A stretch of 64,000 nucleotides of DNA from Aliiglaciecola sp. LCG003 (GTDB lineage Bacteria; Pseudomonadota; Gammaproteobacteria; Enterobacterales; Alteromonadaceae). The notes under the pieces were generated by a model. The model saw only the letters and a program-made list of their open reading frames with translations, searched no databases and was not told the DNA's origin. Numbering within the stretch: the stretch's first letter is position 1; the number at the start of each line of letters is the position of its first letter. The DNA lies in the NCBI RefSeq assembly GCF_030316135.1, contig NZ_CP128185.1:1612001-1676000 (forward strand), in the 5' to 3' direction. Shown here piece after piece: positions 5,642 to 28,718 of the stretch. The position numbers and the translations under genes are program-made.

Positions 5642-5689
5642 TAACAGTGCGAAAAGTTTGCGCTTAACACAGAATTTGAGGAATAAATC

Positions 5690-6871
5690 ATGAAAGAAGC
5701 TGTAATAGTCTCCACCGCTCGCACGCCAATCGGCAGAGCATACAAAGGTGCATTTAATAACTTAGAAGCACCAAGCCTAGCCGGGCATGCCATCAGCGCC
5801 GCAGTGCAGCGTGCTGGTATTGATCCTGCCAGTGTCGATGACGTTATTTTAGGCAGTGCCTTGACCCAAGGTTCTGGTGGAATGAACATCGGCCGTTTAG
5901 GCGCTTTAGCCGGTGGATTACCGGTAACTGTTTCAGGTATGACACTTGATCGCCAATGCAGCTCTGGTATGTACGCAATTGCCACCGCCGCTAAACACAT
6001 TATTACTGATAATGTACCAGTCATGGTTGCTGGTGGTCTTGATTCAATTAGTTTGGTTCAGAATCAACATATGAATACTCACCGGATGGTTGATAAAGCA
6101 CTAGTTGCCAAGCATAAAGACATTTATATGCCTATGCTGCAAACCGCAGAAATAGTAGGTAAACGTTATGGGATCAGTCGCGATGCCATGGACGAGTATG
6201 CATATCAAAGTCAAATGCGTACCGCCGCTGCCCAGCAAGCCGGTAAGTTCGACGATGAAATTGTGGCGGTTACGGCGACAAAAGTGATTGTTGATAGAGA
6301 AACCAAAGAACAAAGTTTTCAAGAAGTAACATTAACTAAAGACGAAGGGAATCGAGCTGAAACAACCCTTGCCGGATTACAATCTCTTAAGCCAGTTATT
6401 GAAGGCGGAACCATTACTGCGGGCAATGCTAGTCAGTTATCTGATGGTGCTTCAGCCAGTGTGATGATGGACAGTAAATTAGCTGAGCAGCAAAATTTAA
6501 CCCCATTAGGCGCTTATCGTGGTATTGCGGTTTCAGGCTGTGAACCGGATGAAATGGGCATAGGTCCAATTTTTGCGGTTCCCAAGTTGCTGAAACAGCA
6601 TGGCTTGACCATGAATGATATTGGCTTGTGGGAGCTAAACGAAGCTTTTGCAGTACAAGTACTCTATTGCCAGCAAAAATTAGGTATTCCAGATGAGCTG
6701 CTAAATGTTAACGGAGGCGCGATTTCAATTGGTCACCCTTATGGCATGAGTGGCGCAAGAATGGTGGGGCATGCGCTGATTGAAGGCAAGCGCCGTGGCG
6801 CTAAATACGTAGTTTGTACTATGTGTATTGGCGGTGGCATGGGTGCTGCTGGTCTGTTTGAAGTCTATTAA
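5690..6871 (+). CDS. Acetyl-CoA acyltransferase / thiolase
   Basis: Thiolytic cleavage of 3-ketoacyl-CoA to acetyl-CoA and a shortened acyl-CoA, the last beta-oxidation step. All three catalytic residues are present: Cys90 (DRQCSSG), His349 ([10 protein letters not shown]) and Cys379 ([10 protein letters not shown]), plus NEAFAVQ. At 393 aa it has the standard length. GAGGAA precedes the ATG at the usual distance. It lies 48 bp after the FadB-like gene and 26 bp before the acyl-CoA dehydrogenase, consistent with one transcript. A degradative role is inferred from the neighbours; biosynthetic acetoacetyl-CoA thiolases share the same motifs. Confidence 0.93.
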
Positions 6872-6897
6872 GCTGTAATTATAAGGTAGTCTGAATT

Positions 6898-8697
6898 ATG
6901 CAAAATTTTAAATCTCCCGTCCGTGACACACTTTTCGTCATGAACGAACTGCTAGGCTTTGAAGCCCATTATAAAAAATTAGGTTTTGATGACGCTTCAC
7001 CGGATATGGTTGAAGCAATTTGTAGTGAAGCAGCTAAATTCACCGATAACGTGTTAGCACCGATTAACGCTATCGGTGACGAAGTGGGTTGTAAGTGGGA
7101 AGACGGCGTGGTGACCACACCACCTGGATTCAAAGAAGCTTATCAAACCTATGTGGAAGGTGGCTGGCCCTCTATGACTCATCCAGAAGAGTATGGTGGT
7201 CAAGGTTTACCTTACTCTCTTGCTTCATCCATTGCCGAATGGTTTTCCGGTGCAAATCACTCTTGGGCAATGTATCCAGGCTTGAGTCAAGGCTGCATCG
7301 CCACAATCAAAGAGCATGGTTCTGATGAGTTAAAACAGCGTTTCTTACCTAAATTAATTGAAGGTAGCTGGACAGGCACTATGTGCCTTACCGAATCCCA
7401 TTGCGGATCAGATTTAGGCATGCTGAAAACCAAAGCCGAGCCTAATGATGATGGTTCATATAGCGTAACAGGAACTAAAATATTCATCTCTGCTGGTGAA
7501 CATGATTTTGCTGACAATATCGTGCATATCGTACTTGCGCGCCTGCCTGATGCTCCTGCGGGTACCCGTGGTATTTCGTTGTTCGTTATCCCTAAATTTA
7601 ATGTGGGCGAAGATGGCGAAGCCGCTGCTAGTAACGGCGTTAGCTGTGGTTCCATTGAACATAAGATGGGTATCAAAGCCAGCGCGACCTGTGTGATTAA
7701 TTTTGATTCAGCAAAAGCGTTTTTGATTGGTCAACCTAATCGTGGCCTCAACTGCATGTTCACTTTCATGAACTCGGCACGTATCGGAACGGGTTTAGAA
7801 GGTTTAGCAGGCACGGAAGCGGCATTCCAAGGTGCGCTTGCATATGCAAAAGATCGTTTACAATTTCGCGCGGCTAAAGGAGCGGTCAATCCAGACGGTC
7901 CAGCTGATCCCATTATTGTTCATCCAGATGTGCGCAGAATGCTGTTAACCCAGAAAGCCTTCAGAGAAGGAAATCGAGCTCTTGCCATTTATTGTATGCA
8001 AATGGTCGATAACACCTTGTACAGCGATAACGAACAAGAAAAGCAGATCGCTGAAGCAAAACTTGCGCTGTTGACGCCTATTGTTAAAGCGTTTTTAACT
8101 GAGACTGCTCAAGAGACAACCAGCTATGGTATGCAAATCTATGGCGGACATGGTTATATCAAAGAGTGGGGCATGGAGCAGTTGGCTCGTGATACCCGTA
8201 TTTGTACTATGTATGAAGGTACAACAGGTATCCAAGCCATTGATCTATTAGGGCGTAAAATCATGGGCTCTAAGGGTGAATTGCTCAAAGTATTTGTCAA
8301 AGAAGTGCAGGAGTATTGCGTCAGCATGCGTGACAAAGCACAGTTTAATGCTTGGTCCAATGCAATTGAAACTCATATTGATGAGTGGGTGCAGATCACT
8401 CAAGAAGTCTCTAAACGTGCTGCAGGCAATCCTGATGAAGTGGGCGCAGCTTCGGTCGATTACCTGATGTATTCTGGTTACATTATTGTTGGCTACATGT
8501 GGCTTAAAATGGCTGTTGTAGCGCAGCAAAGGCTAGATGAAGGCACATCTGATGAAGCCTTCTATCAGGCTAAGTTACAGACTGCTGGCTTCTACTTTGA
8601 CCGTTTGCTATCTCGTACTCGTTCATTGGTTTCGGCGATGGAATCTGGTGCTGATAACCTGATGACGATGCCAGAAGACCATTTCTTAGTTGGGTAA
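6898..8697 (+). CDS. Acyl-CoA dehydrogenase, DmdC/FadE-like 600-aa type (intact copy)
   Basis: FAD-dependent alpha,beta-desaturation of an acyl-CoA, the first beta-oxidation step. The 599-aa length, the N-terminus (SPVRDTLFVMNEL) and the C-terminal extension after the catalytic domain match the family that includes 3-methylmercaptopropionyl-CoA dehydrogenase. The catalytic base is expected at Glu440 in MYEGTTGIQ, with the FAD/substrate segment CLTESHCGSDLG near residue 163. This is the only full-length copy: from base 7176 onward the gene is repeated at 15358-16880, lacking its first 93 codons. A strong intrinsic terminator follows directly. The substrate is unknown; DmdC itself acts in DMSP breakdown, but no other dmd gene is seen. 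Confidence 0.92.
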   Translation: MQNFKSPVRDTLFVMNELLGFEAHYKKLGFDDASPDMVEAICSEAAKFTDNVLAPINAIGDEVGCKWEDGVVTTPPGFKEAYQTYVEGGWPSMTHPEEYGGQGLPYSLASSIAEWFSGANHSWAMYPGLSQGCIATIKEHGSDELKQRFLPKLIEGSWTGTMCLTESHCGSDLGMLKTKAEPNDDGSYSVTGTKIFISAGEHDFADNIVHIVLARLPDAPAGTRGISLFVIPKFNVGEDGEAAASNGVSCGSIEHKMGIKASATCVINFDSAKAFLIGQPNRGLNCMFTFMNSARIGTGLEGLAGTEAAFQGALAYAKDRLQFRAAKGAVNPDGPADPIIVHPDVRRMLLTQKAFREGNRALAIYCMQMVDNTLYSDNEQEKQIAEAKLALLTPIVKAFLTETAQETTSYGMQIYGGHGYIKEWGMEQLARDTRICTMYEGTTGIQAIDLLGRKIMGSKGELLKVFVKEVQEYCVSMRDKAQFNAWSNAIETHIDEWVQITQEVSKRAAGNPDEVGAASVDYLMYSGYIIVGYMWLKMAVVAQQRLDEGTSDEAFYQAKLQTAGFYFDRLLSRTRSLVSAMESGADNLMTMPEDHFLVG

Positions 8698-8719
8698 TAC
8701 CGGTTTTCGATAAAATATT

Positions 8720-8752
8720 AAAGGCGGATGCAAATGCATCCGCCTTTTTTTT
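8720..8752 (+). terminator. Intrinsic terminator after the beta-oxidation operon
   Basis: Perfect 13-bp inverted repeat (arms AAAGGCGGATGCA and its complement, 2-base loop) followed by an eight-T run. It lies 22 bp after the dehydrogenase stop. The T-run ends only 12 bp before the ATG of the next gene, directly against its GGGGAG ribosome site. Confidence 0.9.
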
Positions 8753-8764
8753 GGGGAGAAGTAC

Positions 8765-9673
8765 ATGGAAAGCAAACACATCCACGTCAATGGATGCCGA
8801 ATACATTATATGGAGGCGCTGCCGAAAAGGCCTTCGAAAGGTTGCATAGTCTTTCTACATGGGTTTCCAGAGAATTGGCAAACCTGGCGCAAACAAATTG
8901 CTTTTTTTAGTGCTGAATATCGTGTTATCGCTCCTGATTTACCCGGCTACAACCAATCTTCTAAACCTGAAAATTTGGCGTTCTATGCGGTACCTAATTT
9001 AATTGAAGTAATAAGGCAGTTCATTGAGACTGTGCAACACAGTCAGCAAAAAATAATATTGGTCGCCCACGATTGGGGAGGCGCTATCGCTTGGCCTTTA
9101 GTCGCGTTTAACCCTGAACTTTTTAGTCACCTGATTATATTAAATGCGGCTCACCCGAGCACCTTTACCCGTGAGATGATCTGTAATCCTGTGCAACGGC
9201 AAAAAAGTGGTTATATTCACCAGTTGATTGCTGATGATGCCGAGACCGTCATAGTACAGAATAGCTATAGTTTGCTTACAAATATGTTTGTCGATGAACA
9301 GCAAAACTCGGTTTTGACTGACAACGAGTTAAATGAGTATAGAAAAAGTTGGGCGAGACCTGCAGTGTTGATCTCAATGTTGAAATACTATCAGGCTATG
9401 CCGCAGTTAGCGCCGAGTCAACAGGATATCAACACCAATGGTCCTGTGGTGGAGCTAAGCAAGATGAAAGTGCCGAATATTCGTATAACGACTAAGACCC
9501 TTGTGTTGTGGGGCGAGAAAGATTTGGCTTTTGTGCCGCAATTGTTGGATGGCTTAGAAGAGTATGTGAAGGATGTTCAAATTGAAAAATTTGCTGAGGC
9601 AAATCATTGGCTGCACCATCAGTTTCCCGACTTAGTGAATCAACATATATTAACATTTATCGAATCCACATAG
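8765..9673 (+). CDS. Alpha/beta hydrolase, epoxide-hydrolase-like (unit 1 copy)
   Basis: Predicted to hydrolyse an epoxide (or, less likely, a C-halogen bond) through an aspartyl ester. Motifs: HGFPENW (32-38), DLPGYNQSSKP, nucleophile Asp103 in AHDWGGA, probable acid Asp253 (WGEKDL) and base His281 (EANHWLHHQF). HGFPE and the DWGG nucleophile are shared by soluble epoxide hydrolases and haloacetate dehalogenases; the absence of the typical dehalogenase halide residues favours the former. The protein is 302 aa with GGGGAG ahead of the ATG. A strong terminator occupies the whole gap to the upstream operon, so it needs read-through or an internal promoter. It is convergent with a DUF3718 gene, with a shared hairpin between. 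Confidence 0.82.
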   Translation: MESKHIHVNGCRIHYMEALPKRPSKGCIVFLHGFPENWQTWRKQIAFFSAEYRVIAPDLPGYNQSSKPENLAFYAVPNLIEVIRQFIETVQHSQQKIILVAHDWGGAIAWPLVAFNPELFSHLIILNAAHPSTFTREMICNPVQRQKSGYIHQLIADDAETVIVQNSYSLLTNMFVDEQQNSVLTDNELNEYRKSWARPAVLISMLKYYQAMPQLAPSQQDINTNGPVVELSKMKVPNIRITTKTLVLWGEKDLAFVPQLLDGLEEYVKDVQIEKFAEANHWLHHQFPDLVNQHILTFIEST

Positions 9674-9696
9674 ATTGACCAGTGTCGACACAACGA

Positions 9697-9722
9697 AAAA
9701 CAGCCTCAAAAGAGGCTGTTTT
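9697..9722. terminator. Bidirectional intrinsic terminator
   Basis: Perfect 11-bp stem (AAAACAGCCTC, AAAA loop, complement) with A-run on one side and T-run on the other. It can end the plus-strand hydrolase transcript and the minus-strand DUF3718 transcript. Confidence 0.82.
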
Positions 9723-9788
9723 CCGAGGACGTAGACAACGCATGTCTACTTACCATGTTGAACTGGTAGAGTTCATGTTAATCGATAA

Positions 9789-10184
9789 TTAGATACGGTC
9801 ATTGATCACAGCGTTAATGGCTGAGCCATCAAGGCCGTTCTCTGCTACCCAGGCTTGCAGGGTTTTGCCGTCTTGCTCAGGTGCTGATAAATCTGACTTA
9901 GGCATTTTCTTGACTAGCAAGGTACCGGTCTCAACGGCATCATTTAGCATAGCGGTGCGAATCAGGCTGTTACCGCCACAACTTACACCGGTATAGTAAT
10001 CTTTAAGTTTCAATCTGAAGTCAGACTCAACTTTTTTCATTTTCTTACGAAGCTCACCTTTGTCATCGGTTTTCACGATGGTGCAGATATTTTGCAAAGC
10101 ATCATTAATATCAGCTTGAGCGGTAGTGGTGAACAATAAAGATGTTGCTGCGATAGCGATAGAAGTTTTAACAATTTTCAACAT
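9789..10184 (-). CDS. Small secreted DUF3718-like protein, copy 1a
   Basis: 131-aa protein with a clear Sec signal peptide (MLKIVKTS, then a hydrophobic segment ending TTAQA). The mature part is about 107 aa, lysine-rich, with two cysteines (ICTIVK and VSCGGN) that could form a disulfide in the periplasm. The overall pattern resembles DUF3718 proteins common in Alteromonadales; that assignment is from memory of the family and not from a search. No function is known. The protein is identical to the one at 10606-11001. AGGAAT precedes the ATG. The gene has its own terminator, so it is probably monocistronic. Confidence 0.75.
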   Translation of the reverse strand: MLKIVKTSIAIAATSLLFTTTAQADINDALQNICTIVKTDDKGELRKKMKKVESDFRLKLKDYYTGVSCGGNSLIRTAMLNDAVETGTLLVKKMPKSDLSAPEQDGKTLQAWVAENGLDGSAINAVINDRI

Positions 10185-10605
10185 GGTTAAATTCCTCGAA
10201 TAAGTTAAATGTTAGGGGTTGCGTTTCAACGAGATCAATTAAACCCCAAACTCAGGTTAACTAAAATCTAATAGCTGATACTTAGGGATGAGTTCTTATA
10301 CCAATAGCGCCTGATTTTGACCGCGTTATAGTATTTAGTTTATGTATTACAATGGGTTAAGGTGTATTTATGACTAGGGTAAAAATCTTGATTTAACCTG
10401 TTTATCCTAATGATCTACCTTTGCTAAGGTTAATGGGAGTCGCTGTGGGGCCAAGCATAATGAACAGGGAAGGTGGGCTAGATGAGTGTTAAAGGAATTG
10501 GCAGGTACAACGAAAAACAGCCTCAAAAGAGGCTGTTTTCCGAGGACGTAGACAACGCATGTCTACTTACCATGTTGAACTGGTAGAGTTCATGTTAATC
10601 GATAA
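10185..10605. other. Intergenic region between the two DUF3718 genes (unit 1)
   Basis: 421 bp. It holds the upstream (promoter) region of the left DUF3718 gene and, at the right end, the 3' flank and terminator of the right one. I see no open reading frame worth calling in the unique middle part (10244-10506). Confidence 0.6.
10514..10539. terminator. Intrinsic terminator of the second DUF3718 gene
   Basis: Same 11-bp stem and AAAA loop as at 9697-9722, carried inside the duplicated cassette. Confidence 0.8.
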
Positions 10606-11001
10606 TTAGATTCGGTCATTGATCACAGCGTTAATGGCTGAGCCATCAAGGCCGTTTTCTGCTACCCAGGCTTGCAGGGTTTTGCCGTCTTGCTCAGGTG
10701 CTGATAAATCTGACTTAGGCATTTTCTTGACTAGCAAGGTACCGGTCTCAACGGCATCATTTAGCATAGCGGTGCGAATCAGGCTGTTACCGCCACAACT
10801 TACACCGGTATAGTAATCTTTAAGTTTCAATCTGAAGTCAGACTCAACTTTTTTCATTTTCTTACGAAGCTCACCTTTGTCATCGGTTTTCACGATGGTG
10901 CAGATATTTTGCAAAGCATCATTAATATCAGCTTGAGCGGTAGTGGTGAACAATAAAGATGTTGCTGCGATAGCGATAGAAGTTTTAACAATTTTCAACA
11001 T
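10606..11001 (-). CDS. Small secreted DUF3718-like protein, copy 1b
   Basis: Protein sequence identical to copy 1a despite two synonymous base differences near the 3' end (CGA/CGT for the penultimate Arg codon and GAA/GAG at one Glu codon). Signal peptide and two cysteines as in 1a. Its upstream flank diverges from that of 1a beyond about 60 bp, so promoter control may differ between the paralogues. The fully conserved protein suggests either a very recent duplication or gene conversion. Confidence 0.75.
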   Translation of the reverse strand: MLKIVKTSIAIAATSLLFTTTAQADINDALQNICTIVKTDDKGELRKKMKKVESDFRLKLKDYYTGVSCGGNSLIRTAMLNDAVETGTLLVKKMPKSDLSAPEQDGKTLQAWVAENGLDGSAINAVINDRI

Positions 11002-11229
11002 GGTTAAATTCCTCGAATAAGTTAAATGTTAGGGGTTGCGTTTCAACGGGATTAATTAAAGACTATTGAGGAAAGGATTAAAATCTATGTATCAATACTA
11101 AAGTATTAGTAGCTATACCTTAAAGGTAATAGAAAAATGTGATAGATCTTCGCTATTCGGCTGGTTGCTTATAACTGGGGCAATAGGCAAACAGAAAGGT
11201 AGTTCTGTTTGCCAAATAAGTTTGATAAG

Positions 11230-12135
11230 TCAGTGGGGATGGAGAAAAACGTTTGCTACTTCAGATATTTGTTCGCGCATCCATATATGAGCATGATCAT
11301 GGTCGGCACTAACATGCCAATATAAAAAATACTCGAGCGGAGACACGTGAAACGGCATCTCATAGATAGATAGCTCGTAGTGTTTAGCTAGGTGATAAGG
11401 AATACAAGAGATCAAGTCGGTTTTTACAATAGTACTTGGGACGGTTAAGAAATGCTGCCCACGCATAACGATTTTTCGACGTTTACCTATCTTATCCAGC
11501 GCGATATCAATCGGTCCAGCGCCGCTGCGTCTATGGGACACATTGATGTGACCTAAACGTAAAAAGGTGTCTAAGTCTAACCCTTGCTTCAAGTCGGGGT
11601 GGTTTTTTCGTGCCATCACCACAAATCTATCTTCCGCTATTTTTTGCTTGCATAAATGTGGATCAGTAAAGGTTGAGGCATCAGCATAGAAGTCTAAACT
11701 ACCACTGGCCATGGCTGAAACAACCGTATTGCGGGCCACTTCATAATTGGTAATAGTGATACGTGGGGAGCGACTTTGTAGGTTGGCTAGAAGACGCGGC
11801 ATGACGCTGGCTTCAAGTAAGTCCCGGGTGGCGAAATGGAAAGATTTTTCCGCGGTTTCCGGATCAAAGGTATGGCTGTCTTGTACGCTTTTGCGTAGCA
11901 AACCAAGGGCATTTCGAGCCGGGCCAATGATATTTTGAGCTACCGGTGTGGGTGTCATACTGTGTCCGGTTCTAACGAACAACGGATCATTCAGCATTTC
12001 CCGTAATCTAGCCAGAGAATTGCTCACAGCGGGCTGAGTGATACACAACACATCAGCAGCTTTGGTTAAACTTCCCGCAGTATATATTGCATCGAAAACA
12101 GCAAACAAATTTAAGTCTATTCGATTGAGGTTCAT
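11230..12135 (-). CDS. LysR-family transcriptional regulator, NodD/DntR-like (unit 1 copy)
   Basis: 301 aa. The N-terminal winged helix-turn-helix covers about residues 6-65 (DLNLFAVFDAIYTAGSLTKAADVLCITQPAVSNSLARLR); a periplasmic-binding-protein-like effector domain follows. The N-terminus beginning RIDLNLFAVFDAI is typical of the NodD/LinR/DntR branch, which often senses aromatic or hydrophobic effectors. It is divergent from the MaoC gene across a 171-bp AT-rich gap, the usual geometry for a LysR protein controlling its neighbour. The likely targets (MaoC, TonB receptor) are inferred from position only. Confidence 0.9.
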   Translation of the reverse strand: MNLNRIDLNLFAVFDAIYTAGSLTKAADVLCITQPAVSNSLARLREMLNDPLFVRTGHSMTPTPVAQNIIGPARNALGLLRKSVQDSHTFDPETAEKSFHFATRDLLEASVMPRLLANLQSRSPRITITNYEVARNTVVSAMASGSLDFYADASTFTDPHLCKQKIAEDRFVVMARKNHPDLKQGLDLDTFLRLGHINVSHRRSGAGPIDIALDKIGKRRKIVMRGQHFLTVPSTIVKTDLISCIPYHLAKHYELSIYEMPFHVSPLEYFLYWHVSADHDHAHIWMREQISEVANVFLHPH

Positions 12136-12306
12136 GGTTACCCTTTTATGCTATATAGGCTACTTGAGCCGCCTTTAGTGACGAAATCGAGTTAATTTCT
12201 ATTAGATATTTTGATAGTTTATTATACATAACATTCATTTCGTTAATAGTATGTAGATTGCTAAGATGTTAAAAAATGTTAATAAAACTAATCAAAGGGG
12301 CAGGGT

Positions 12307-12759
12307 ATGGGTAAGAATTTATCACAACTAGAAGATGGCGAAGACTTGGGTAGCACTGATTGGCTAACGATATCACAGCAGATGATAAATGAATTTGCTG
12401 ATGCAACAGGCGATCATCAATGGATCCATGTGGATCCTCAAAGATGCGCTGAACAAAGTCCGTTTAAAAAAACTATTGCCCATGGCTTATTATCTACGTC
12501 CCTTATGCCCAAAGTATTCTACAAGCTAATCCAATTAGATGCCAAGCAGCAAACCTTGTTGAATTATGGAATGGACTCATTGCGTTTTCTTGAGTCAGTT
12601 AGAGTAGACGACCGGATTCGCTATCATGTGAAGTTAGATAGCACAGAAGTAAAAAACAGCGGTATCTTGTATCGCTTTGATTGCCAAGTAGAAATAGAGA
12701 ATAGAGAGAAGCCTGCAATGGTCGGAAAGTTTCTTATGCTGCTGATTTCTGGGGAATAA
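12307..12759 (+). CDS. MaoC-like (R)-hydratase (unit 1 copy)
   Basis: Hot-dog-fold enoyl-CoA hydratase of 150 aa. The hydratase-2 signature is present: FADATGDHQWIHVDP (30-44) with catalytic Asp36 and His41, and IAHGLLS (57-63). It would hydrate a trans-2-enoyl-CoA to the (R)-3-hydroxyacyl-CoA, distinct from the (S) product of the FadB-like enzyme. AAAGGGG precedes the ATG. It stands between the LysR gene (divergent) and the TonB receptor, 235 bp upstream of the latter. The role in this pathway is unproven; it may handle a branched or beta-hydroxylated intermediate. Confidence 0.88.
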   Translation: MGKNLSQLEDGEDLGSTDWLTISQQMINEFADATGDHQWIHVDPQRCAEQSPFKKTIAHGLLSTSLMPKVFYKLIQLDAKQQTLLNYGMDSLRFLESVRVDDRIRYHVKLDSTEVKNSGILYRFDCQVEIENREKPAMVGKFLMLLISGE

Positions 12760-12767
12760 AATTTAAC

Positions 12768-12778
12768 TGGTCGGTCCA
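12768..12778. promoter_or_regulatory. GGTCGGTCC motif upstream of TonB receptor
   Basis: CTGGTCGGTCC just after the MaoC stop resembles half of the TGACC-N4-GGTCA palindrome at 24385 and known TetR-family operators. No TetR gene is in the window, so this is weak. Confidence 0.2.
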
Positions 12779-12856
12779 TCTTAAAAATAAATGTTCACAT
12801 ATAAGTAACAGTATATTTACATATGGTTGTTCAACCCCTACCATTTATCTGCATGC

Positions 12857-12876
12857 TGCGCTGATTTGTCAGCGCA
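12857..12876. promoter_or_regulatory. Perfect hairpin in the TonB receptor leader region
   Basis: 8-bp stem (TGCGCTGA, TTTG loop, complement) about 120 bp upstream of the receptor start. No T-run follows, so it is not an ordinary terminator. It could be an operator or a leader structure. Confidence 0.35.
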
Positions 12877-12994
12877 AAGCATAAAGCACAAAACATAAAA
12901 CTAAAACTTATCGAATGCAGATATGACCTGACTGGATGGGTTCGGATCAAATGTCCAAGAGGTTGTGTTAGCCATTATGATTAGGGGACACACA

Positions 12995-15508
12995 ATGAAA
13001 CTAAAGACACGCGTAAGTGCGATTGCAGCTATTGTATCGTCGCAGTTACTTGCTATACCCCAGTACGCGGTAGCTCAAGAACAAGAACAGGACGGTAATA
13101 GTGAGATAGAGCTCATTATGGTAACCGGTAGCTTCGTGCGCCGTTCTGAAAATTTTGAATCACCCTCTCCTCTAGCAGTAATAGATAGCGTAGCGATTGA
13201 TGCTATCGGTGCGAAAAACATAGCAGATATTACCCAAACCCTGACGATTAATTCAGGCTCACAAAATAACCCAGATGCATTCACGCAAAATGCAACCGCT
13301 GGTACATCTAACATTAACTTACGCGGTTTGGGGGTTGCATCTACATTGGTGCTTCTAAACAACCGACGTCAGGTTGTGAATGCTCAACCTACCAATGATG
13401 GTCTAAATTTCGTTGATACCAGCTCCTTAGTTCCTATGATCGCTATCAATCGTATGGAAGTTGTTAAAGATGGTGCATCAGCATTGTATGGTTCTGATGC
13501 CGTTGCAGGTGTAGTTAACTTTATCACTAAACGCAATTATGACGGCGCGATGATGAGCTTTGATTACCAAGACGGTGCTCATGGCGATAACAAAGAATAT
13601 GTCATTCAGGGCCTTTGGGGAGCAGATGGCGAGAAAAGTAATGTAATGGCTGCGGTTAGCTATACCAATCGCTCGCCCTTATTTATAAGTGATCGTCGCC
13701 TTAGTCGTCCACAAGATGACACTAGTGCTTTAGGTAACCCAGGTTCATACTTTCTAACGATTCCAGGGGTAGGTACATTGCCTATTATTGACCCTTATGG
13801 TTGTGAAGAGTTTGGTGGATATCCTGACTTAAGAGCACCAAGTGGGACTATACCGGGACTCGAAATTGGACTTTGTGGATTTGATTTTGGCCCCTACTAT
13901 TCATATGTAGCAGATGAGTCGCGGACGAATATCTACGCCCAAGCGACTTTTGAAATTACCGATGAGTTAACTTGGACAACCGAGTTTGGCTATGCACGAA
14001 ATCGTGCCGAACGCGGCGGTGCGCCTAGTTTTCCAATCTTGACCTCTCCAATCGTACCTGCTGATCATCCACAAAATCCGTTCGGTGCGCCTGTTGCATT
14101 TTTCGGACGGGCAGAAGGGAATGGTTTTGAGGGCGACCCAGCCAATACAGAATCAGATACTTTCCGCTTTAATACCGCCTTACAAGGTGAGATGGATAAC
14201 GGATTTTGGGAAATTAGCTACACTCGTGCAGTGAATGACTTCCTATTTAAAGTGCCTGATGTGTTAAATACTGAGTTTAACCTAGCCTTAAACGGTTTAG
14301 GTGGCGGACAATGTAATCCATTAACAGGTACACCAGGTGAAGGGGATTGTGAATATTTCAATCCGTTTGCTAATTCATTTACGACTGCGCCAAATTCACA
14401 ATATGTTGTTGACTCATTTACCGGTGAAGAAGTCATAGATTCAAGGTCCGATTTAGAAGTGTTCGAAGGCTTTGCCTCATTTGAAGCATTTGAAATGGGT
14501 AGTGGCATGGCGTCTGTTGCTTTAGGGATGCAATACCGAGAAGAGAAACTTTCACAAGATTATGATTCTCTTGCTAACCAAGACAGCTTTACCTTTGTTA
14601 TAGGTAACCCTGATTTTGAAGGTGCTATCGATGTATGGGCGGCGTTTGGTGAGTTAGCATTGCCGGTCACTGAAGACTTGGATGTGCAAATTGCATTGCG
14701 TTACGAAGACTACGGCGGTGTAGTGGGTGATACCTTAGATCCGAAATTGGCGTTCTCGTATCGCGCAAGCGAAGATCTATCTTTCCGTGGCTCGATCTCA
14801 ACGTCTTTCCGAGCACCGACGGTATTTTTGCGTAATGGTGGAGCAACATCGCTACAGCAATTGGTTGATCCTGTTCAAGCGGCTCAGGCATTTGTGGCCG
14901 TAAGAGCGGAGGGTAATGAAAACCTTACCCCTGAAAAATCGAAAGCTTACAACCTTGGATTCTCCTTTGAGCCCGTTGATAACCTATCAATTGAAGTAGA
15001 TTATTGGAGCTTTGAGTTCAAAGACCTGATTATACAAGAAAATGCTCAGGCTATACTTAACAGTGATCCGACTAATACTGACCGAGTTATCCGTGCAGGT
15101 GATCCATTAACCGGACCTGTTCTGCAGATTAACAGTACCTACGTGAATGCGAATTCATTAGAAACTTCTGGTTTGGATTTTGTCAGTAGCTATAAAATTG
15201 AGACAGATGACGCGGGTACTTTTACGCCATCTATCAACGCGACTTACATTACTAAGTACGAGTTGGCTGATCCTCAGTCCGATGCCGTTATTGATGGTGC
15301 AGGCAGACGTAACTTTACTAACATTGGTGTATCGTCCCCTGAGCTTCGGATGAATCTGACTCATCCAGAAGAGTTATGGTGGTCAAGGTTTACCTTACTC
15401 TCTTGCTTCATCCATTGCCGAATGGTTTTCCGGTGCAAATCACTCTTGGGCAATGTATCCAGGCTTGAGTCAAGGCTGCATCGCCACAATCAAAGAGCAT
15501 GGTTCTGA
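12995..15508 (+). pseudogene. TonB-dependent receptor truncated at duplication junction (unit 1), chimeric tail
   Basis: Outer-membrane receptor with signal peptide (MKLKTRVSA to AVAQ), a probable TonB box near IELIMVTGS and a plug domain ([35 protein letters not shown]). The true receptor sequence stops at codon 787. Then it reads into acyl-CoA dehydrogenase sequence, in the dehydrogenase frame for six codons, until an extra T at about 15374 shifts it into an unrelated 45-odd-residue tail ending at 15508. The final beta-strands and the C-terminal Phe needed for BAM-mediated assembly are missing, so a functional receptor is unlikely. The start at 12995 is chosen for the signal peptide and AGGGGA upstream. 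Confidence 0.88.
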
Positions 15509-16880
15509 TGAGTTAAAACAGCGTTTCTTACCTAAATTAATTGAAGGTAGCTGGACAGGCACTATGTGCCTTACCGAATCCCATTGCGGATCAGATTTAG
15601 GCATGCTGAAAACCAAAGCCGAGCCTAATGATGATGGTTCATATAGCGTAACAGGAACTAAAATATTCATCTCTGCTGGTGAACATGATTTTGCTGACAA
15701 TATCGTGCATATCGTACTTGCGCGCCTGCCTGATGCTCCTGCGGGTACCCGTGGTATTTCGTTGTTCGTTATCCCTAAATTTAATGTGGGCGAAGATGGC
15801 GAAGCCGCTGCTAGTAACGGCGTTAGCTGTGGTTCCATTGAACATAAGATGGGTATCAAAGCCAGCGCGACCTGTGTGATTAATTTTGATTCAGCAAAAG
15901 CGTTTTTGATTGGTCAACCTAATCGTGGCCTCAACTGCATGTTCACTTTCATGAACTCGGCACGTATCGGAACGGGTTTAGAAGGTTTAGCAGGCACGGA
16001 AGCGGCATTCCAAGGTGCGCTTGCATATGCAAAAGATCGTTTACAATTTCGCGCGGCTAAAGGAGCGGTCAATCCAGACGGTCCAGCTGATCCCATTATT
16101 GTTCATCCAGATGTGCGCAGAATGCTGTTAACCCAGAAAGCCTTCAGAGAAGGAAATCGAGCTCTTGCCATTTATTGTATGCAAATGGTCGATAACACCT
16201 TGTACAGCGATAACGAACAAGAAAAGCAGATCGCTGAAGCAAAACTTGCGCTGTTGACGCCTATTGTTAAAGCGTTTTTAACTGAGACTGCTCAAGAGAC
16301 AACCAGCTATGGTATGCAAATCTATGGCGGACATGGTTATATCAAAGAGTGGGGCATGGAGCAGTTGGCTCGTGATACCCGTATTTGTACTATGTATGAA
16401 GGTACAACAGGTATCCAAGCCATTGATCTATTAGGGCGTAAAATCATGGGCTCTAAGGGTGAATTGCTCAAAGTATTTGTCAAAGAAGTGCAGGAGTATT
16501 GCGTCAGCATGCGTGACAAAGCACAGTTTAATGCTTGGTCCAATGCAATTGAAACTCATATTGATGAGTGGGTGCAGATCACTCAAGAAGTCTCTAAACG
16601 TGCTGCAGGCAATCCTGATGAAGTGGGCGCAGCTTCGGTCGATTACCTGATGTATTCTGGTTACATTATTGTTGGCTACATGTGGCTTAAAATGGCTGTT
16701 GTAGCGCAGCAAAGGCTAGATGAAGGCACATCTGATGAAGCCTTCTATCAGGCTAAGTTACAGACTGCTGGCTTCTACTTTGACCGTTTGCTATCTCGTA
16801 CTCGTTCATTGGTTTCGGCGATGGAATCTGGTGCTGATAACCTGATGACGATGCCAGAAGACCATTTCTTAGTTGGGTAA
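15358..16880 (+). pseudogene. Acyl-CoA dehydrogenase copy lacking its N-terminus (unit 2)
   Basis: Carries codons 94-599 of the dehydrogenase at 6898. The first in-frame ATG after the frame-shifting T is at 15453 (MYPGLSQG), giving at most a 475-aa protein without the N-terminal helical domain and with no evident ribosome site. The catalytic Glu region is retained, but the N-terminal domain helps to form the substrate and FAD site, so activity is improbable. Transcription could come from the upstream receptor promoter. Confidence 0.87.
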
Positions 16881-16902
16881 TACCGGTTTTCGATAAAATA
16901 TT

Positions 16903-16935
16903 AAAGGCGGATGCAAATGCATCCGCCTTTTTTTT
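16903..16935 (+). terminator. Intrinsic terminator (unit 2 copy)
   Basis: Duplicate of 8720-8752, here following the truncated dehydrogenase and abutting the ribosome site of the second hydrolase copy. Confidence 0.88.
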
Positions 16936-16947
16936 GGGGAGAAGTAC

Positions 16948-17856
16948 ATGGAAAGCAAACACATCCACGTCAATGGATGCCGAATACATTATATGGAGGC
17001 GCTGCCGAAAAGGCCTTCGAAAGGTTGCATAGTCTTTCTACATGGGTTTCCAGAGAATTGGCAAACCTGGCGCAAACAAATTGCTTTTTTTAGTGCTGAA
17101 TATCGTGTTATCGCTCCTGATTTACCCGGCTACAACCAATCTTCTAAACCTGAAAATTTGGCGTTCTATGCGGTACCTAATTTAATTGAAGTAATAAGGC
17201 AGTTCATTGAGACTGTGCAACACAGTCAGCAAAAAATAATATTGGTCGCCCACGATTGGGGAGGCGCTATCGCTTGGCCTTTAGTCGCGTTTAACCCTGA
17301 ACTTTTTAGTCACCTGATTATATTAAATGCGGCTCACCCGAGCACCTTTACCCGTGAGATGATCTGTAATCCTGTGCAACGGCAAAAAAGTGGTTATATT
17401 CACCAGTTGATTGCTGATGATGCCGAGACCGTCATAGTACAGAATAGCTATAGTTTGCTTACAAATATGTTTGTCGATGAACAGCAAAACTCGGTTTTGA
17501 CTGACAACGAGTTAAATGAGTATAGAAAAAGTTGGGCGAGACCTGCAGTGTTGATCTCAATGTTGAAATACTATCAGGCTATGCCGCAGTTAGCGCCGAG
17601 TCAACAGGATATCAACACCAATGGTCCTGTGGTGGAGCTAAGCAAGATGAAAGTGCCGAATATTCGTATAACGACTAAGACCCTTGTGTTGTGGGGCGAG
17701 AAAGATTTGGCTTTTGTGCCGCAATTGTTGGATGGCTTAGAAGAGTATGTGAAGGATGTTCAAATTGAAAAATTTGCTGAGGCAAATCATTGGCTGCACC
17801 ATCAGTTTCCCGACTTAGTGAATCAACATATATTAACATTTATCGAATCCACATAG
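16948..17856 (+). CDS. Alpha/beta hydrolase, epoxide-hydrolase-like (unit 2 copy)
   Basis: Protein identical to that at 8765-9673, with the same catalytic residues (Asp103, Asp253, His281). Unlike the unit 1 copy, the gene upstream is a broken dehydrogenase driven, if at all, from the receptor promoter. Read-through of the terminator could therefore couple this copy to receptor expression. Confidence 0.82.
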   Translation: MESKHIHVNGCRIHYMEALPKRPSKGCIVFLHGFPENWQTWRKQIAFFSAEYRVIAPDLPGYNQSSKPENLAFYAVPNLIEVIRQFIETVQHSQQKIILVAHDWGGAIAWPLVAFNPELFSHLIILNAAHPSTFTREMICNPVQRQKSGYIHQLIADDAETVIVQNSYSLLTNMFVDEQQNSVLTDNELNEYRKSWARPAVLISMLKYYQAMPQLAPSQQDINTNGPVVELSKMKVPNIRITTKTLVLWGEKDLAFVPQLLDGLEEYVKDVQIEKFAEANHWLHHQFPDLVNQHILTFIEST

Positions 17857-17879
17857 ATTGACCAGTGTCGACACAACGA

Positions 17880-17905
17880 AAAACAGCCTCAAAAGAGGCT
17901 GTTTT
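17880..17905. terminator. Bidirectional intrinsic terminator (unit 2)
   Basis: 11-bp stem with AAAA loop, identical to 9697-9722. Confidence 0.8.
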
Positions 17906-17971
17906 CCGAGGACGTAGACAACGCATGTCTACTTACCATGTTGAACTGGTAGAGTTCATGTTAATCGATAA

Positions 17972-18367
17972 TTAGATACGGTCATTGATCACAGCGTTAA
18001 TGGCTGAGCCATCAAGGCCGTTCTCTGCTACCCAGGCTTGCAGGGTTTTGCCGTCTTGCTCAGGTGCTGATAAATCTGACTTAGGCATTTTCTTGACTAG
18101 CAAGGTACCGGTCTCAACGGCATCATTTAGCATAGCGGTGCGAATCAGGCTGTTACCGCCACAACTTACACCGGTATAGTAATCTTTAAGTTTCAATCTG
18201 AAGTCAGACTCAACTTTTTTCATTTTCTTACGAAGCTCACCTTTGTCATCGGTTTTCACGATGGTGCAGATATTTTGCAAAGCATCATTAATATCAGCTT
18301 GAGCGGTAGTGGTGAACAATAAAGATGTTGCTGCGATAGCGATAGAAGTTTTAACAATTTTCAACAT
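17972..18367 (-). CDS. Small secreted DUF3718-like protein, copy 2a
   Basis: Third gene for the same 131-aa secreted protein. The DNA matches copy 1a including its ATACGG variant near the 3' end, confirming that it arose with the 8.18-kb event and not by a separate cassette duplication. Confidence 0.75.
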   Translation of the reverse strand: MLKIVKTSIAIAATSLLFTTTAQADINDALQNICTIVKTDDKGELRKKMKKVESDFRLKLKDYYTGVSCGGNSLIRTAMLNDAVETGTLLVKKMPKSDLSAPEQDGKTLQAWVAENGLDGSAINAVINDRI

Positions 18368-18788
18368 GGTTAAATTCCTCGAATAAGTTAAATGTTAGGG
18401 GTTGCGTTTCAACGAGATCAATTAAACCCCAAACTCAGGTTAACTAAAATCTAATAGCTGATACTTAGGGATGAGTTCTTATACCAATAGCGCCTGATTT
18501 TGACCGCGTTATAGTATTTAGTTTATGTATTACAATGGGTTAAGGTGTATTTATGACTAGGGTAAAAATCTTGATTTAACCTGTTTATCCTAATGATCTA
18601 CCTTTGCTAAGGTTAATGGGAGTCGCTGTGGGGCCAAGCATAATGAACAGGGAAGGTGGGCTAGATGAGTGTTAAAGGAATTGGCAGGTACAACGAAAAA
18701 CAGCCTCAAAAGAGGCTGTTTTCCGAGGACGTAGACAACGCATGTCTACTTACCATGTTGAACTGGTAGAGTTCATGTTAATCGATAA
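18368..18788. other. Intergenic region between DUF3718 genes (unit 2)
   Basis: Same content as 10185-10605: promoter flank of one gene and terminator flank of the other; nothing further seen. Confidence 0.6.
18697..18722. terminator. Intrinsic terminator of DUF3718 copy 2b
   Basis: Same hairpin as 10514-10539. Confidence 0.8.
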
Positions 18789-19184
18789 TTAGATTCGGTC
18801 ATTGATCACAGCGTTAATGGCTGAGCCATCAAGGCCGTTTTCTGCTACCCAGGCTTGCAGGGTTTTGCCGTCTTGCTCAGGTGCTGATAAATCTGACTTA
18901 GGCATTTTCTTGACTAGCAAGGTACCGGTCTCAACGGCATCATTTAGCATAGCGGTGCGAATCAGGCTGTTACCGCCACAACTTACACCGGTATAGTAAT
19001 CTTTAAGTTTCAATCTGAAGTCAGACTCAACTTTTTTCATTTTCTTACGAAGCTCACCTTTGTCATCGGTTTTCACGATGGTGCAGATATTTTGCAAAGC
19101 ATCATTAATATCAGCTTGAGCGGTAGTGGTGAACAATAAAGATGTTGCTGCGATAGCGATAGAAGTTTTAACAATTTTCAACAT
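18789..19184 (-). CDS. Small secreted DUF3718-like protein, copy 2b
   Basis: Fourth gene for the 131-aa protein, carrying the ATTCGG variant that marks the right-hand member of each pair. All four encode the same amino-acid sequence, so dosage is the only difference expected. Confidence 0.75.
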   Translation of the reverse strand: MLKIVKTSIAIAATSLLFTTTAQADINDALQNICTIVKTDDKGELRKKMKKVESDFRLKLKDYYTGVSCGGNSLIRTAMLNDAVETGTLLVKKMPKSDLSAPEQDGKTLQAWVAENGLDGSAINAVINDRI

Positions 19185-19412
19185 GGTTAAATTCCTCGAA
19201 TAAGTTAAATGTTAGGGGTTGCGTTTCAACGGGATTAATTAAAGACTATTGAGGAAAGGATTAAAATCTATGTATCAATACTAAAGTATTAGTAGCTATA
19301 CCTTAAAGGTAATAGAAAAATGTGATAGATCTTCGCTATTCGGCTGGTTGCTTATAACTGGGGCAATAGGCAAACAGAAAGGTAGTTCTGTTTGCCAAAT
19401 AAGTTTGATAAG

Positions 19413-20318
19413 TCAGTGGGGATGGAGAAAAACGTTTGCTACTTCAGATATTTGTTCGCGCATCCATATATGAGCATGATCATGGTCGGCACTAACATGC
19501 CAATATAAAAAATACTCGAGCGGAGACACGTGAAACGGCATCTCATAGATAGATAGCTCGTAGTGTTTAGCTAGGTGATAAGGAATACAAGAGATCAAGT
19601 CGGTTTTTACAATAGTACTTGGGACGGTTAAGAAATGCTGCCCACGCATAACGATTTTTCGACGTTTACCTATCTTATCCAGCGCGATATCAATCGGTCC
19701 AGCGCCGCTGCGTCTATGGGACACATTGATGTGACCTAAACGTAAAAAGGTGTCTAAGTCTAACCCTTGCTTCAAGTCGGGGTGGTTTTTTCGTGCCATC
19801 ACCACAAATCTATCTTCCGCTATTTTTTGCTTGCATAAATGTGGATCAGTAAAGGTTGAGGCATCAGCATAGAAGTCTAAACTACCACTGGCCATGGCTG
19901 AAACAACCGTATTGCGGGCCACTTCATAATTGGTAATAGTGATACGTGGGGAGCGACTTTGTAGGTTGGCTAGAAGACGCGGCATGACGCTGGCTTCAAG
20001 TAAGTCCCGGGTGGCGAAATGGAAAGATTTTTCCGCGGTTTCCGGATCAAAGGTATGGCTGTCTTGTACGCTTTTGCGTAGCAAACCAAGGGCATTTCGA
20101 GCCGGGCCAATGATATTTTGAGCTACCGGTGTGGGTGTCATACTGTGTCCGGTTCTAACGAACAACGGATCATTCAGCATTTCCCGTAATCTAGCCAGAG
20201 AATTGCTCACAGCGGGCTGAGTGATACACAACACATCAGCAGCTTTGGTTAAACTTCCCGCAGTATATATTGCATCGAAAACAGCAAACAAATTTAAGTC
20301 TATTCGATTGAGGTTCAT
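19413..20318 (-). CDS. LysR-family regulator, NodD/DntR-like (unit 2 copy)
   Basis: Identical 301-aa protein to 11230-12135, again divergent from a MaoC gene. Regulator and putative targets are doubled together, so stoichiometry between them is kept. Confidence 0.9.
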   Translation of the reverse strand: MNLNRIDLNLFAVFDAIYTAGSLTKAADVLCITQPAVSNSLARLREMLNDPLFVRTGHSMTPTPVAQNIIGPARNALGLLRKSVQDSHTFDPETAEKSFHFATRDLLEASVMPRLLANLQSRSPRITITNYEVARNTVVSAMASGSLDFYADASTFTDPHLCKQKIAEDRFVVMARKNHPDLKQGLDLDTFLRLGHINVSHRRSGAGPIDIALDKIGKRRKIVMRGQHFLTVPSTIVKTDLISCIPYHLAKHYELSIYEMPFHVSPLEYFLYWHVSADHDHAHIWMREQISEVANVFLHPH

Positions 20319-20489
20319 GGTTACCCTTTTATGCTATATAGGCTACTTGAGCCGCCTTTAGTGACGAAATCGAGTTAATTTCTATTAGATATTTTGATAG
20401 TTTATTATACATAACATTCATTTCGTTAATAGTATGTAGATTGCTAAGATGTTAAAAAATGTTAATAAAACTAATCAAAGGGGCAGGGT

Positions 20490-20942
20490 ATGGGTAAGAA
20501 TTTATCACAACTAGAAGATGGCGAAGACTTGGGTAGCACTGATTGGCTAACGATATCACAGCAGATGATAAATGAATTTGCTGATGCAACAGGCGATCAT
20601 CAATGGATCCATGTGGATCCTCAAAGATGCGCTGAACAAAGTCCGTTTAAAAAAACTATTGCCCATGGCTTATTATCTACGTCCCTTATGCCCAAAGTAT
20701 TCTACAAGCTAATCCAATTAGATGCCAAGCAGCAAACCTTGTTGAATTATGGAATGGACTCATTGCGTTTTCTTGAGTCAGTTAGAGTAGACGACCGGAT
20801 TCGCTATCATGTGAAGTTAGATAGCACAGAAGTAAAAAACAGCGGTATCTTGTATCGCTTTGATTGCCAAGTAGAAATAGAGAATAGAGAGAAGCCTGCA
20901 ATGGTCGGAAAGTTTCTTATGCTGCTGATTTCTGGGGAATAA
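20490..20942 (+). CDS. MaoC-like (R)-hydratase (unit 2 copy)
   Basis: Identical to 12307-12759 (catalytic Asp36 and His41 retained). This copy lies upstream of the complete TonB receptor and so represents the ancestral right-hand arrangement. Confidence 0.88.
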   Translation: MGKNLSQLEDGEDLGSTDWLTISQQMINEFADATGDHQWIHVDPQRCAEQSPFKKTIAHGLLSTSLMPKVFYKLIQLDAKQQTLLNYGMDSLRFLESVRVDDRIRYHVKLDSTEVKNSGILYRFDCQVEIENREKPAMVGKFLMLLISGE

Positions 20943-21177
20943 AATTTAACTGGTCGGTCCATCTTAAAAATAAATGTTCACATATAAGTAACAGTATATT
21001 TACATATGGTTGTTCAACCCCTACCATTTATCTGCATGCTGCGCTGATTTGTCAGCGCAAAGCATAAAGCACAAAACATAAAACTAAAACTTATCGAATG
21101 CAGATATGACCTGACTGGATGGGTTCGGATCAAATGTCCAAGAGGTTGTGTTAGCCATTATGATTAGGGGACACACA

Positions 21178-23880
21178 ATGAAACTAAAGACACGCGTAAG
21201 TGCGATTGCAGCTATTGTATCGTCGCAGTTACTTGCTATACCCCAGTACGCGGTAGCTCAAGAACAAGAACAGGACGGTAATAGTGAGATAGAGCTCATT
21301 ATGGTAACCGGTAGCTTCGTGCGCCGTTCTGAAAATTTTGAATCACCCTCTCCTCTAGCAGTAATAGATAGCGTAGCGATTGATGCTATCGGTGCGAAAA
21401 ACATAGCAGATATTACCCAAACCCTGACGATTAATTCAGGCTCACAAAATAACCCAGATGCATTCACGCAAAATGCAACCGCTGGTACATCTAACATTAA
21501 CTTACGCGGTTTGGGGGTTGCATCTACATTGGTGCTTCTAAACAACCGACGTCAGGTTGTGAATGCTCAACCTACCAATGATGGTCTAAATTTCGTTGAT
21601 ACCAGCTCCTTAGTTCCTATGATCGCTATCAATCGTATGGAAGTTGTTAAAGATGGTGCATCAGCATTGTATGGTTCTGATGCCGTTGCAGGTGTAGTTA
21701 ACTTTATCACTAAACGCAATTATGACGGCGCGATGATGAGCTTTGATTACCAAGACGGTGCTCATGGCGATAACAAAGAATATGTCATTCAGGGCCTTTG
21801 GGGAGCAGATGGCGAGAAAAGTAATGTAATGGCTGCGGTTAGCTATACCAATCGCTCGCCCTTATTTATAAGTGATCGTCGCCTTAGTCGTCCACAAGAT
21901 GACACTAGTGCTTTAGGTAACCCAGGTTCATACTTTCTAACGATTCCAGGGGTAGGTACATTGCCTATTATTGACCCTTATGGTTGTGAAGAGTTTGGTG
22001 GATATCCTGACTTAAGAGCACCAAGTGGGACTATACCGGGACTCGAAATTGGACTTTGTGGATTTGATTTTGGCCCCTACTATTCATATGTAGCAGATGA
22101 GTCGCGGACGAATATCTACGCCCAAGCGACTTTTGAAATTACCGATGAGTTAACTTGGACAACCGAGTTTGGCTATGCACGAAATCGTGCCGAACGCGGC
22201 GGTGCGCCTAGTTTTCCAATCTTGACCTCTCCAATCGTACCTGCTGATCATCCACAAAATCCGTTCGGTGCGCCTGTTGCATTTTTCGGACGGGCAGAAG
22301 GGAATGGTTTTGAGGGCGACCCAGCCAATACAGAATCAGATACTTTCCGCTTTAATACCGCCTTACAAGGTGAGATGGATAACGGATTTTGGGAAATTAG
22401 CTACACTCGTGCAGTGAATGACTTCCTATTTAAAGTGCCTGATGTGTTAAATACTGAGTTTAACCTAGCCTTAAACGGTTTAGGTGGCGGACAATGTAAT
22501 CCATTAACAGGTACACCAGGTGAAGGGGATTGTGAATATTTCAATCCGTTTGCTAATTCATTTACGACTGCGCCAAATTCACAATATGTTGTTGACTCAT
22601 TTACCGGTGAAGAAGTCATAGATTCAAGGTCCGATTTAGAAGTGTTCGAAGGCTTTGCCTCATTTGAAGCATTTGAAATGGGTAGTGGCATGGCGTCTGT
22701 TGCTTTAGGGATGCAATACCGAGAAGAGAAACTTTCACAAGATTATGATTCTCTTGCTAACCAAGACAGCTTTACCTTTGTTATAGGTAACCCTGATTTT
22801 GAAGGTGCTATCGATGTATGGGCGGCGTTTGGTGAGTTAGCATTGCCGGTCACTGAAGACTTGGATGTGCAAATTGCATTGCGTTACGAAGACTACGGCG
22901 GTGTAGTGGGTGATACCTTAGATCCGAAATTGGCGTTCTCGTATCGCGCAAGCGAAGATCTATCTTTCCGTGGCTCGATCTCAACGTCTTTCCGAGCACC
23001 GACGGTATTTTTGCGTAATGGTGGAGCAACATCGCTACAGCAATTGGTTGATCCTGTTCAAGCGGCTCAGGCATTTGTGGCCGTAAGAGCGGAGGGTAAT
23101 GAAAACCTTACCCCTGAAAAATCGAAAGCTTACAACCTTGGATTCTCCTTTGAGCCCGTTGATAACCTATCAATTGAAGTAGATTATTGGAGCTTTGAGT
23201 TCAAAGACCTGATTATACAAGAAAATGCTCAGGCTATACTTAACAGTGATCCGACTAATACTGACCGAGTTATCCGTGCAGGTGATCCATTAACCGGACC
23301 TGTTCTGCAGATTAACAGTACCTACGTGAATGCGAATTCATTAGAAACTTCTGGTTTGGATTTTGTCAGTAGCTATAAAATTGAGACAGATGACGCGGGT
23401 ACTTTTACGCCATCTATCAACGCGACTTACATTACTAAGTACGAGTTGGCTGATCCTCAGTCCGATGCCGTTATTGATGGTGCAGGCAGACGTAACTTTA
23501 CTAACATTGGTGTATCGTCCCCTGAGCTTCGGATGAATCTTGGTTTTAATTGGAAGAAAGATGCCCATGCCGCTAACATTTTTATACGCTATATAAGTGG
23601 TTATGATGATGATCAAAACTGTAGTGATGGAAGCTTAGCTACTGGTGGTGTGTGTTCAGTGGGTTACTATGAGGTCGACAGCCATGTAACTGTCGATGCC
23701 CAATACAACCTAGACTTAGGTGCGGTACTTGAAACTGATATGAAATATGTTTTATCAGTGGGTGGTATCAACCTGATGGATGAAGAGCCTCCTCAACTGT
23801 TCACTAACAGTGGTTTTGATTCTAAAGTACACGATCCACGTGGCAGACAAATCTACGCGAGATTAGCAGTAGAGTTCTAA
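21178..23880 (+). CDS. TonB-dependent receptor (intact copy)
   Basis: 900-aa outer-membrane active transporter energised by TonB-ExbBD. Signal peptide at 1-28, plug domain to about residue 200 ([30 protein letters not shown]), then the 22-strand barrel ending in [15 protein letters not shown] with the terminal Phe typical of barrel proteins. The NPFA-type and cysteine-containing loops suggest an organic ligand rather than a classical siderophore, but that is speculation. The start at 21178 (AGGGGA upstream) is preferred over an in-frame ATG 30 bp earlier. Its position after LysR/MaoC suggests uptake of the substrate degraded by the cluster. The truncated sister lies at 12995. Confidence 0.92.
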
Positions 23881-24466: not shown

Positions 24467-24524
24467 ACGCTCCTCTTGAGAAGGCAGGTAAGCAATTCAC
24501 CAGCCACTCAATAAAGATTTCAGA

Positions 24525-24601
<77 letters not shown>

Positions 24602-24610
24602 TAAACGATT

Positions 24611-24640
24611 AAGCCGATAAGTTACCTTATCGGCTTTTTT
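24611..24640 (+). terminator. Terminator of tRNA-fMet copy A
   Basis: 11-bp perfect stem (AAGCCGATAAG, TTAC loop, complement) with a T-run. Confidence 0.9.
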
Positions 24641-24865
24641 GTGTTTATAAATCATGATCTTTCTAACTCTCTTTGCCATATTAGTGATAGGCAGCAAGGT
24701 AAATAGCTAAAAGTGCTAAGATGATTCTGTTACATAGGGCCTGAACATTATGGACAGGCAACTACCTTGCACTGTTCGATCAATCTTTGTATTCATGCTC
24801 ACCGGCTAAATATAAATTTCAGTCACCCATATCGAAATCTAACTTGTGCAGCTTAACGGATCTTA

Positions 24866-28660: not shown

Positions 28661-28718
28661 GCGCTGCCTAACGAGGGGATAGTGACATTTAGCACTCTTT
28701 CGTTGAGAAGATTTCAGA

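What the first reader, a model, noticed from the sequence alone, without database searches (positions are those of the whole stretch)
7176..23540. 8.18-kb perfect tandem duplication of a catabolic gene block
Two head-to-tail units, identical apart from one base next to the junction. Duplicated: hydrolase, DUF3718 pair, LysR, MaoC, and most of the dehydrogenase and receptor. The ends share only one base and no IS is seen, so it is an illegitimate-recombination amplification or an assembly artefact. If real, it is very recent and may reflect selection for dosage during growth on this pathway's substrate.
Basis: partly seen in the sequence, partly recalled or inferred. Interest (0 to 1): 0.8.

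Follow-up and report, generated by a model that had tools for sequence, protein, structure and literature searches.

The report
Likely untrimmed contig overlap, not duplication
A published marine bacterial chromosome holds an 8.2-kb stretch written twice in a row; the evidence points to the two overlapping ends of one circular assembly having been joined without trimming, rather than to a real gene amplification.

Summary
In detail: 7176-15357 (8182 bp) and 15358-23540 (8183 bp) are head-to-tail copies, identical except for one extra T at 15374/15375, 17 bases inside copy 2. The window comes from Aliiglaciecola sp. LCG003: the genome's length, 4,411,932 bp, equals the published one. That genome was made with PacBio RS II (~10-kb inserts), HGAP/Canu, manual circularisation and Pilon. 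The record begins exactly 100 bases before the dnaA ATG, so it was evidently rotated. Long-read contigs of circular DNA often carry near-identical overlapping ends. An overlap left in place before rotation would give this picture: one perfect tandem repeat of about a read length, a join inside two genes with 1 bp shared, and one uncorrected insertion beside the former contig end. No relative examined has the join, and the genus genomes that hold the block show it once. I judge artefact about 0.8, real duplication by illegitimate recombination about 0.2. Raw reads, which I could not reach, decide. If real, it raises dosage of a hydrolase, two DUF3718 genes, a LysR regulator and a MaoC hydratase only.

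The parts
7176..15357 (+). copy 1 of the repeated unit (8182 bp)
15358..23540 (+). copy 2 of the repeated unit (8183 bp); under the favoured reading 15358 is the first base of the original linear contig and 15357 its last
   Evidence: the contig reading is inference
15357..15358 (.). novel join: receptor codon 798 runs into dehydrogenase codon 93; 1 bp shared; reading frames in phase at the join
15374..15375 (+). extra T (T to TT), the only difference between the copies, 17 bases from the join; shifts the fused frame
12965..15508 (+). fused ORF, 847 aa: first 798 of 910 receptor residues plus 49 residues up to a stop; lacks the C-terminal 112 receptor residues
15453..16880 (+). dehydrogenase remnant of copy 2, ORF of 475 aa from an internal Met (native 599 aa)
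6898..8697 (+). intact acyl-CoA dehydrogenase, 599 aa, crossing the native left breakpoint
   Evidence: PF12806, PF00441, PF02771, PF02770
21148..23880 (+). intact TonB-dependent receptor, 910 aa, crossing the native right breakpoint
   Evidence: PF00593, PF07715
8765..9673 (+). alpha/beta hydrolase (second copy 16948-17856)
   Evidence: PF00561
9789..10184 (-). DUF3718 gene a (second copy 17972-18367)
   Evidence: PF12514
10606..11001 (-). DUF3718 gene b, same protein as a (second copy 18789-19184)
11230..12135 (-). LysR-type regulator (second copy 19413-20318)
   Evidence: PF00126, PF03466
12307..12759 (+). MaoC-like hydratase (second copy 20490-20942)
   Evidence: PF01575

Best explanation
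It is most likely an assembly artefact. A long-read assembler wrote the circular chromosome as a linear contig whose last ~8.18 kb repeated its first ~8.18 kb. The two ends were joined without removing the overlap and the sequence was rotated to 100 bases before dnaA, which moved the overlap inside the record as a perfect tandem repeat. In that reading the original contig began at window 15358 and ended at 15357 (genome 1,627,358 and 1,627,357), and the extra T is a residual error near the contig start that short-read polishing could not repair beside a false join. An untrimmed overlap between two contigs joined by hand would look the same. Shown: the repeat, its single insertion, the join, the start of the record at dnaA, the published method. 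Inferred: that the overlap was left untrimmed. The chromosome would then be about 4,403,749 bp and single-copy here.
For: Identity of the record: its 4,411,932 bp equals the length printed for LCG003 (passage). Method: PacBio RS II, ~10-kb inserts, HGAP and Canu, manual circularisation, Pilon (passages). Rotation: dnaA ATG at base 101, and 12 kb from each end of the record show no similarity to each other at E 1e-3, so the original contig ends probably lie inside the record. The Circlator paper says linear contigs of circular DNA often have near-identical overlaps at both ends, drawn as low-quality ends (passages); a second PacBio/HGAP paper calls such overlapping ends an artefact of assembly and trimmed them (passages). 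The overlap of 8.18 kb is of the order of the insert size. The join shares 1 bp, sits inside two genes, and has no palindrome nearby. The one difference lies 17 bases from the join; one random place would do so with probability 0.002, or 0.004 counting both ends. No alignment (E up to 1e-20) to a relative's locus crosses the join, while the native left boundary is crossed in 6 of 13 named loci and the native right boundary in 12 of 13.
Against: The authors say circularisation was manually checked and gave a single seamless chromosome, and Illumina polishing came last. No reads or depth were available. A 1-bp join with an extra base is also possible for real illegitimate recombination, and a fresh real duplication would be just as identical; perfect tandem repeats do occur in real genomes (a 1728-bp one in M. 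tuberculosis, passage). The insertion near the join fits a change made during a real event as well as a contig-end error. Relatives share only about 67-78% DNA identity here, so they cannot exclude a strain-private event, and most are drafts that could have collapsed a repeat; one of the genus genomes with the block once, G003, is a single contig.
Confidence: 0.8

Rival explanations
1. A real, very recent tandem duplication formed by illegitimate recombination (end joining or template switching with 1 bp in common), with a base added near the join, caught in the sequenced culture without selection.
For: The two copies are otherwise identical; no gene is lost, as each boundary gene keeps one intact copy; tandem duplications that need no homologous sequence are reported in E. 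coli (passage).
Against: In one E. coli study all 40 sequenced amplification junctions had microhomology; the complex ones had 3 to 30 bp, though three deletions there had 1 to 4 bp (passages). Here it is 1 bp, what random ends often give. Reads from ~10-kb inserts would barely bridge an exact 8.18-kb repeat, so a real one would more easily be collapsed than resolved (inference). Direct repeats of this size are expected to be lost by recombination (general knowledge; the paper I sought on this is not held).
Confidence: 0.17
2. A real duplication kept by selection for gene dosage during growth on the substrate of this pathway.
For: The strain was enriched with lignin as sole carbon source, and the block adjoins beta-oxidation genes (3452-8697).
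Against: The enzymes with the clearest catabolic roles (3-hydroxyacyl-CoA dehydrogenase/hydratase, thiolase, complete acyl-CoA dehydrogenase) are not doubled; the doubled genes include a regulator and two DUF3718 genes of unknown role. I found no link of the block to lignin: the LCG003 main text has 0 occurrences of beta-oxidation, acyl-CoA dehydrogenase and duplicat.
Confidence: 0.03

Closest known systems
Untrimmed overlapping ends of a linear contig from a circular chromosome (the problem Circlator addresses, PMC4699355)
   Same: Near-identical head-to-tail sequence of about a read length, arbitrary end points, residual error at a contig end.
   Different: Here the repeat is internal, as expected if the record was rotated; the failure to trim is inferred, not seen.
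Short-junction tandem duplications of enteric bacteria (name recalled; E. coli junctions seen in passages of PMC3161906)
   Same: Direct head-to-tail repeat, no IS seen, almost no shared sequence at the join.
   Different: All 40 amplification junctions sequenced in that study had microhomology; here one shared base, and no experimental evidence of the join.

Membership tests
Untrimmed contig-end overlap artefact | Perfect or near-perfect direct repeat, head to tail, with no extra sequence between copies | tested here: met
Untrimmed contig-end overlap artefact | Record rotated after assembly, so former contig ends can lie inside it | tested here: met
   dnaA ATG at base 101; no similarity between 12 kb at each record end; that the start was set on purpose is inference
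Untrimmed contig-end overlap artefact | Long-read overlap assembly with manual circularisation | tested here: met
   methods passages of PMC10821302
Untrimmed contig-end overlap artefact | Residual error at the former contig end | tested here: inconclusive
   a single extra T lies 17 bases from the join; whether it is an error or a real base is not known
Untrimmed contig-end overlap artefact | No raw read crosses the join; normal depth | not testable with these tools
   no reads available
Short-junction tandem duplication | Microhomology of several bases at the join (usual, not universal) | tested here: not met
   1 base; some reported events need none, so this only lowers the claim
Short-junction tandem duplication | Reads or PCR across the novel join, twofold depth | not testable with these tools
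   no reads available
Selected gene amplification | Dosage-dependent growth benefit | not testable with these tools
   needs the strain

The most novel reading that the evidence does not exclude
The duplication is real and the extra T is a second-step change: without that base the join would be in frame and encode a 1304-residue chimera of an outer-membrane receptor and a cytoplasmic dehydrogenase, plausibly harmful when exported, so a frameshift 17 bases after the join would have been favoured. The record would then have caught a duplication and the change that silenced its fusion product together.
Probability: 0.03. Interest if true: 0.5.

Novelty: not a real feature. Interest (0 to 1): 0.12.

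Why it matters
If it is an artefact, the reference chromosome of LCG003 is about 8.2 kb too long, carries false paralogues and one false fused gene, and should be corrected before anyone counts gene dosage or strain-specific genes. If real, it would be a fresh, nearly homology-free tandem duplication in a marine isolate with its join and a neighbouring change still readable.

Tried and rejected
IS- or repeat-mediated duplication: not supported; no transposase domain in the 20 proteins scanned between 1569 and 37890, no repeat at the breakpoints other than the unit itself, no perfect inverted repeat arms of 8 bp or more within 80 bp. Overlap at the record's present ends: none in 12 kb from each end. 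Plasmid copy: no megablast match in 72,556 plasmid records.

An inherited duplication: one search covered 9 genomes of the genus, the window's own included. Of the 8 others, 6 (G001-G004, G006, G007) show strong dehydrogenase and receptor matches once each (G007 on two contigs); G008 shows the dehydrogenase, DUF3718, LysR and MaoC matches once but no long receptor match; G005, 59% complete, shows only DUF3718 matches, a weak dehydrogenase match and one short receptor-region match. Weaker dehydrogenase-like matches (about 63-70% identity, presumably paralogues), short receptor-region matches and further DUF3718 matches occur elsewhere in several of them. One search gave 13 loci with a receptor relative: 12 at 71-90% identity (L008-L019), 1 at 30% (L020). 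In one search no alignment to these crosses the join (rows for L001 and L002, the window's own DNA, were left out of the print). Named and unnamed sets overlap: L008/L021, L009/L022 and L019/L024 give the same alignment figures, so the counts are not independent.

Another candidate source, Aliiglaciecola sp. SL4, was excluded: 40 contigs and 4,375,838 bp. Papers: whole text of PMC12509555; outline and passages of PMC10821302; passages of PMC11278965, PMC4699355, PMC3161906, PMC11111574 and PMC5393005; for the rest the search listing only; PMC2865909 is not held. The sister strain LCG002, described with the same pipeline, would be a good control; I made no call for its genome. A self-comparison of the whole chromosome for other tandem repeats was not done.

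Full report
Observation. The tandem repeat is in the record as described. Offset 8183 dominates the self-comparison. Copy 1 spans 7176-15357 and copy 2 spans 15358-23540; the only difference is one extra T 17 bases inside copy 2. The two native boundaries lie inside the acyl-CoA dehydrogenase gene (6898-8697) and inside the TonB receptor gene (21148-23880), so each keeps one intact copy, and the join creates an 847-aa fused ORF and a 475-aa dehydrogenase remnant.

Source. The window is bases 1,612,001-1,676,000 of a single 4,411,932-base contig. That length is exactly the one printed for Aliiglaciecola sp. LCG003, CP128185.1 (passages of PMC10821302), and the receptor's nearest named relatives are Aliiglaciecola (88-90% identity). 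I take the identification as firm, though it rests on length and kinship, not on an accession shown by a tool.

How the record was made. The paper reports PacBio RS II with ~10-kb inserts, HGAP and Canu assembly, a manually checked circularisation, and Pilon polishing at the end. The record starts exactly 100 bases before the dnaA ATG, so it was evidently rotated on purpose. The Circlator paper states that contigs of circular DNA often have near-identical overlaps at each end that need manual work, and draws them as low-quality ends (passages); another HGAP study trimmed such ends (passages).

Why the artefact is favoured. First, an untrimmed overlap inside a rotated record predicts one perfect head-to-tail repeat about as long as a read, with ends at arbitrary places. 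The breakpoints are inside two genes and share 1 base, with no palindrome beside them and no transposase domain among the 20 neighbouring proteins scanned. Random ends would share one base or none with probability about 0.84 (my arithmetic, equal base use). Second, the single difference lies 17 bases from the join, a place with a random chance of 0.002-0.004; contig ends are where consensus is poorest, and short reads do not align across a false join, so polishing would leave an error there (inference). A one-base insertion is also the typical raw PacBio error (recalled). Third, an exact 8.18-kb repeat is close to the insert size and would be hard to resolve if real (inference).

What this does not settle. 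A real duplication with an added base near the join would give the same letters. In E. coli, 40 of 40 sequenced amplification junctions had microhomology in one study, and three deletions there had only 1 to 4 bp (passages); other work reports duplications that need none (passage). The authors say they checked the circularisation by hand. Only reads, depth or junction PCR decide. The position of the insertion speaks against a later random mutation under either view, not against a change made during the event.

Relatives. Of the 8 other genus genomes searched, 6 show the dehydrogenase and the receptor strongly once each (one over two contigs), 1 shows the block without a long receptor match, and 1, 59% complete, lacks the block; one of the 6, G003, is a single contig, so its single copy is less likely to be a draft collapse. 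Of 13 loci found with the receptor, 12 are close relatives. Among these 13 the native left boundary is crossed by an alignment in 6 and the native right boundary in 12, the join in 0. This shows the repeat is private to this record among those examined; it does not separate artefact from strain-private event.

If real. The arrangement raises dosage of the hydrolase, two DUF3718 genes, the LysR regulator and the MaoC hydratase. The fused receptor lacks its last 112 residues and would probably not insert properly (inference). Without the extra T the join would be in frame for a 1304-residue chimera, which is the basis of the bold reading given in the section on the most novel reading.

Verdict. 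Most likely an artefact of circularisation or contig joining (0.8). Interest is low, except as a correction to a reference genome.

Noticed in passing
window 9690-11014 and L005 (G000 4,170,404-4,171,952): DUF3718 genes stand as tandem, nearly identical pairs at two places in this genome: 99.5% DNA identity here with the same protein, 100% at 4.17 Mb. Three Aliiglaciecola loci (L008, L009, L019) also carry pairs here, but less alike (86.3% in L008, 84.2% in L019; in L009 each copy is closer to an L019 copy), so recent gene conversion or re-duplication in this genome is possible.
   Followed up: partly
window 28719-38111: 93 bases holding the 3' part of a tRNA-Met gene and its terminator (28763-28855) recur exactly 9256 bases downstream (38019-38111), enclosing an RND pump, HlyD-like protein, thioredoxin-like proteins and a two-component system; it looks like a tRNA-bounded island, but no integrase was among the 6 proteins scanned there.
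   Followed up: partly
window 24514-28840: Two complete tRNA-Met genes with matching flanks (98% over 133 bp) are separated by 4.2 kb holding an FAD oxidoreductase, a photolyase-related protein and a solute-binding protein; in relatives L010 and L034 two tRNA-Met matches lie within about 350 bases.
   Followed up: partly
window 45322-48488: Curli-type genes: a curlin-repeat protein and CsgG.
   Followed up: no
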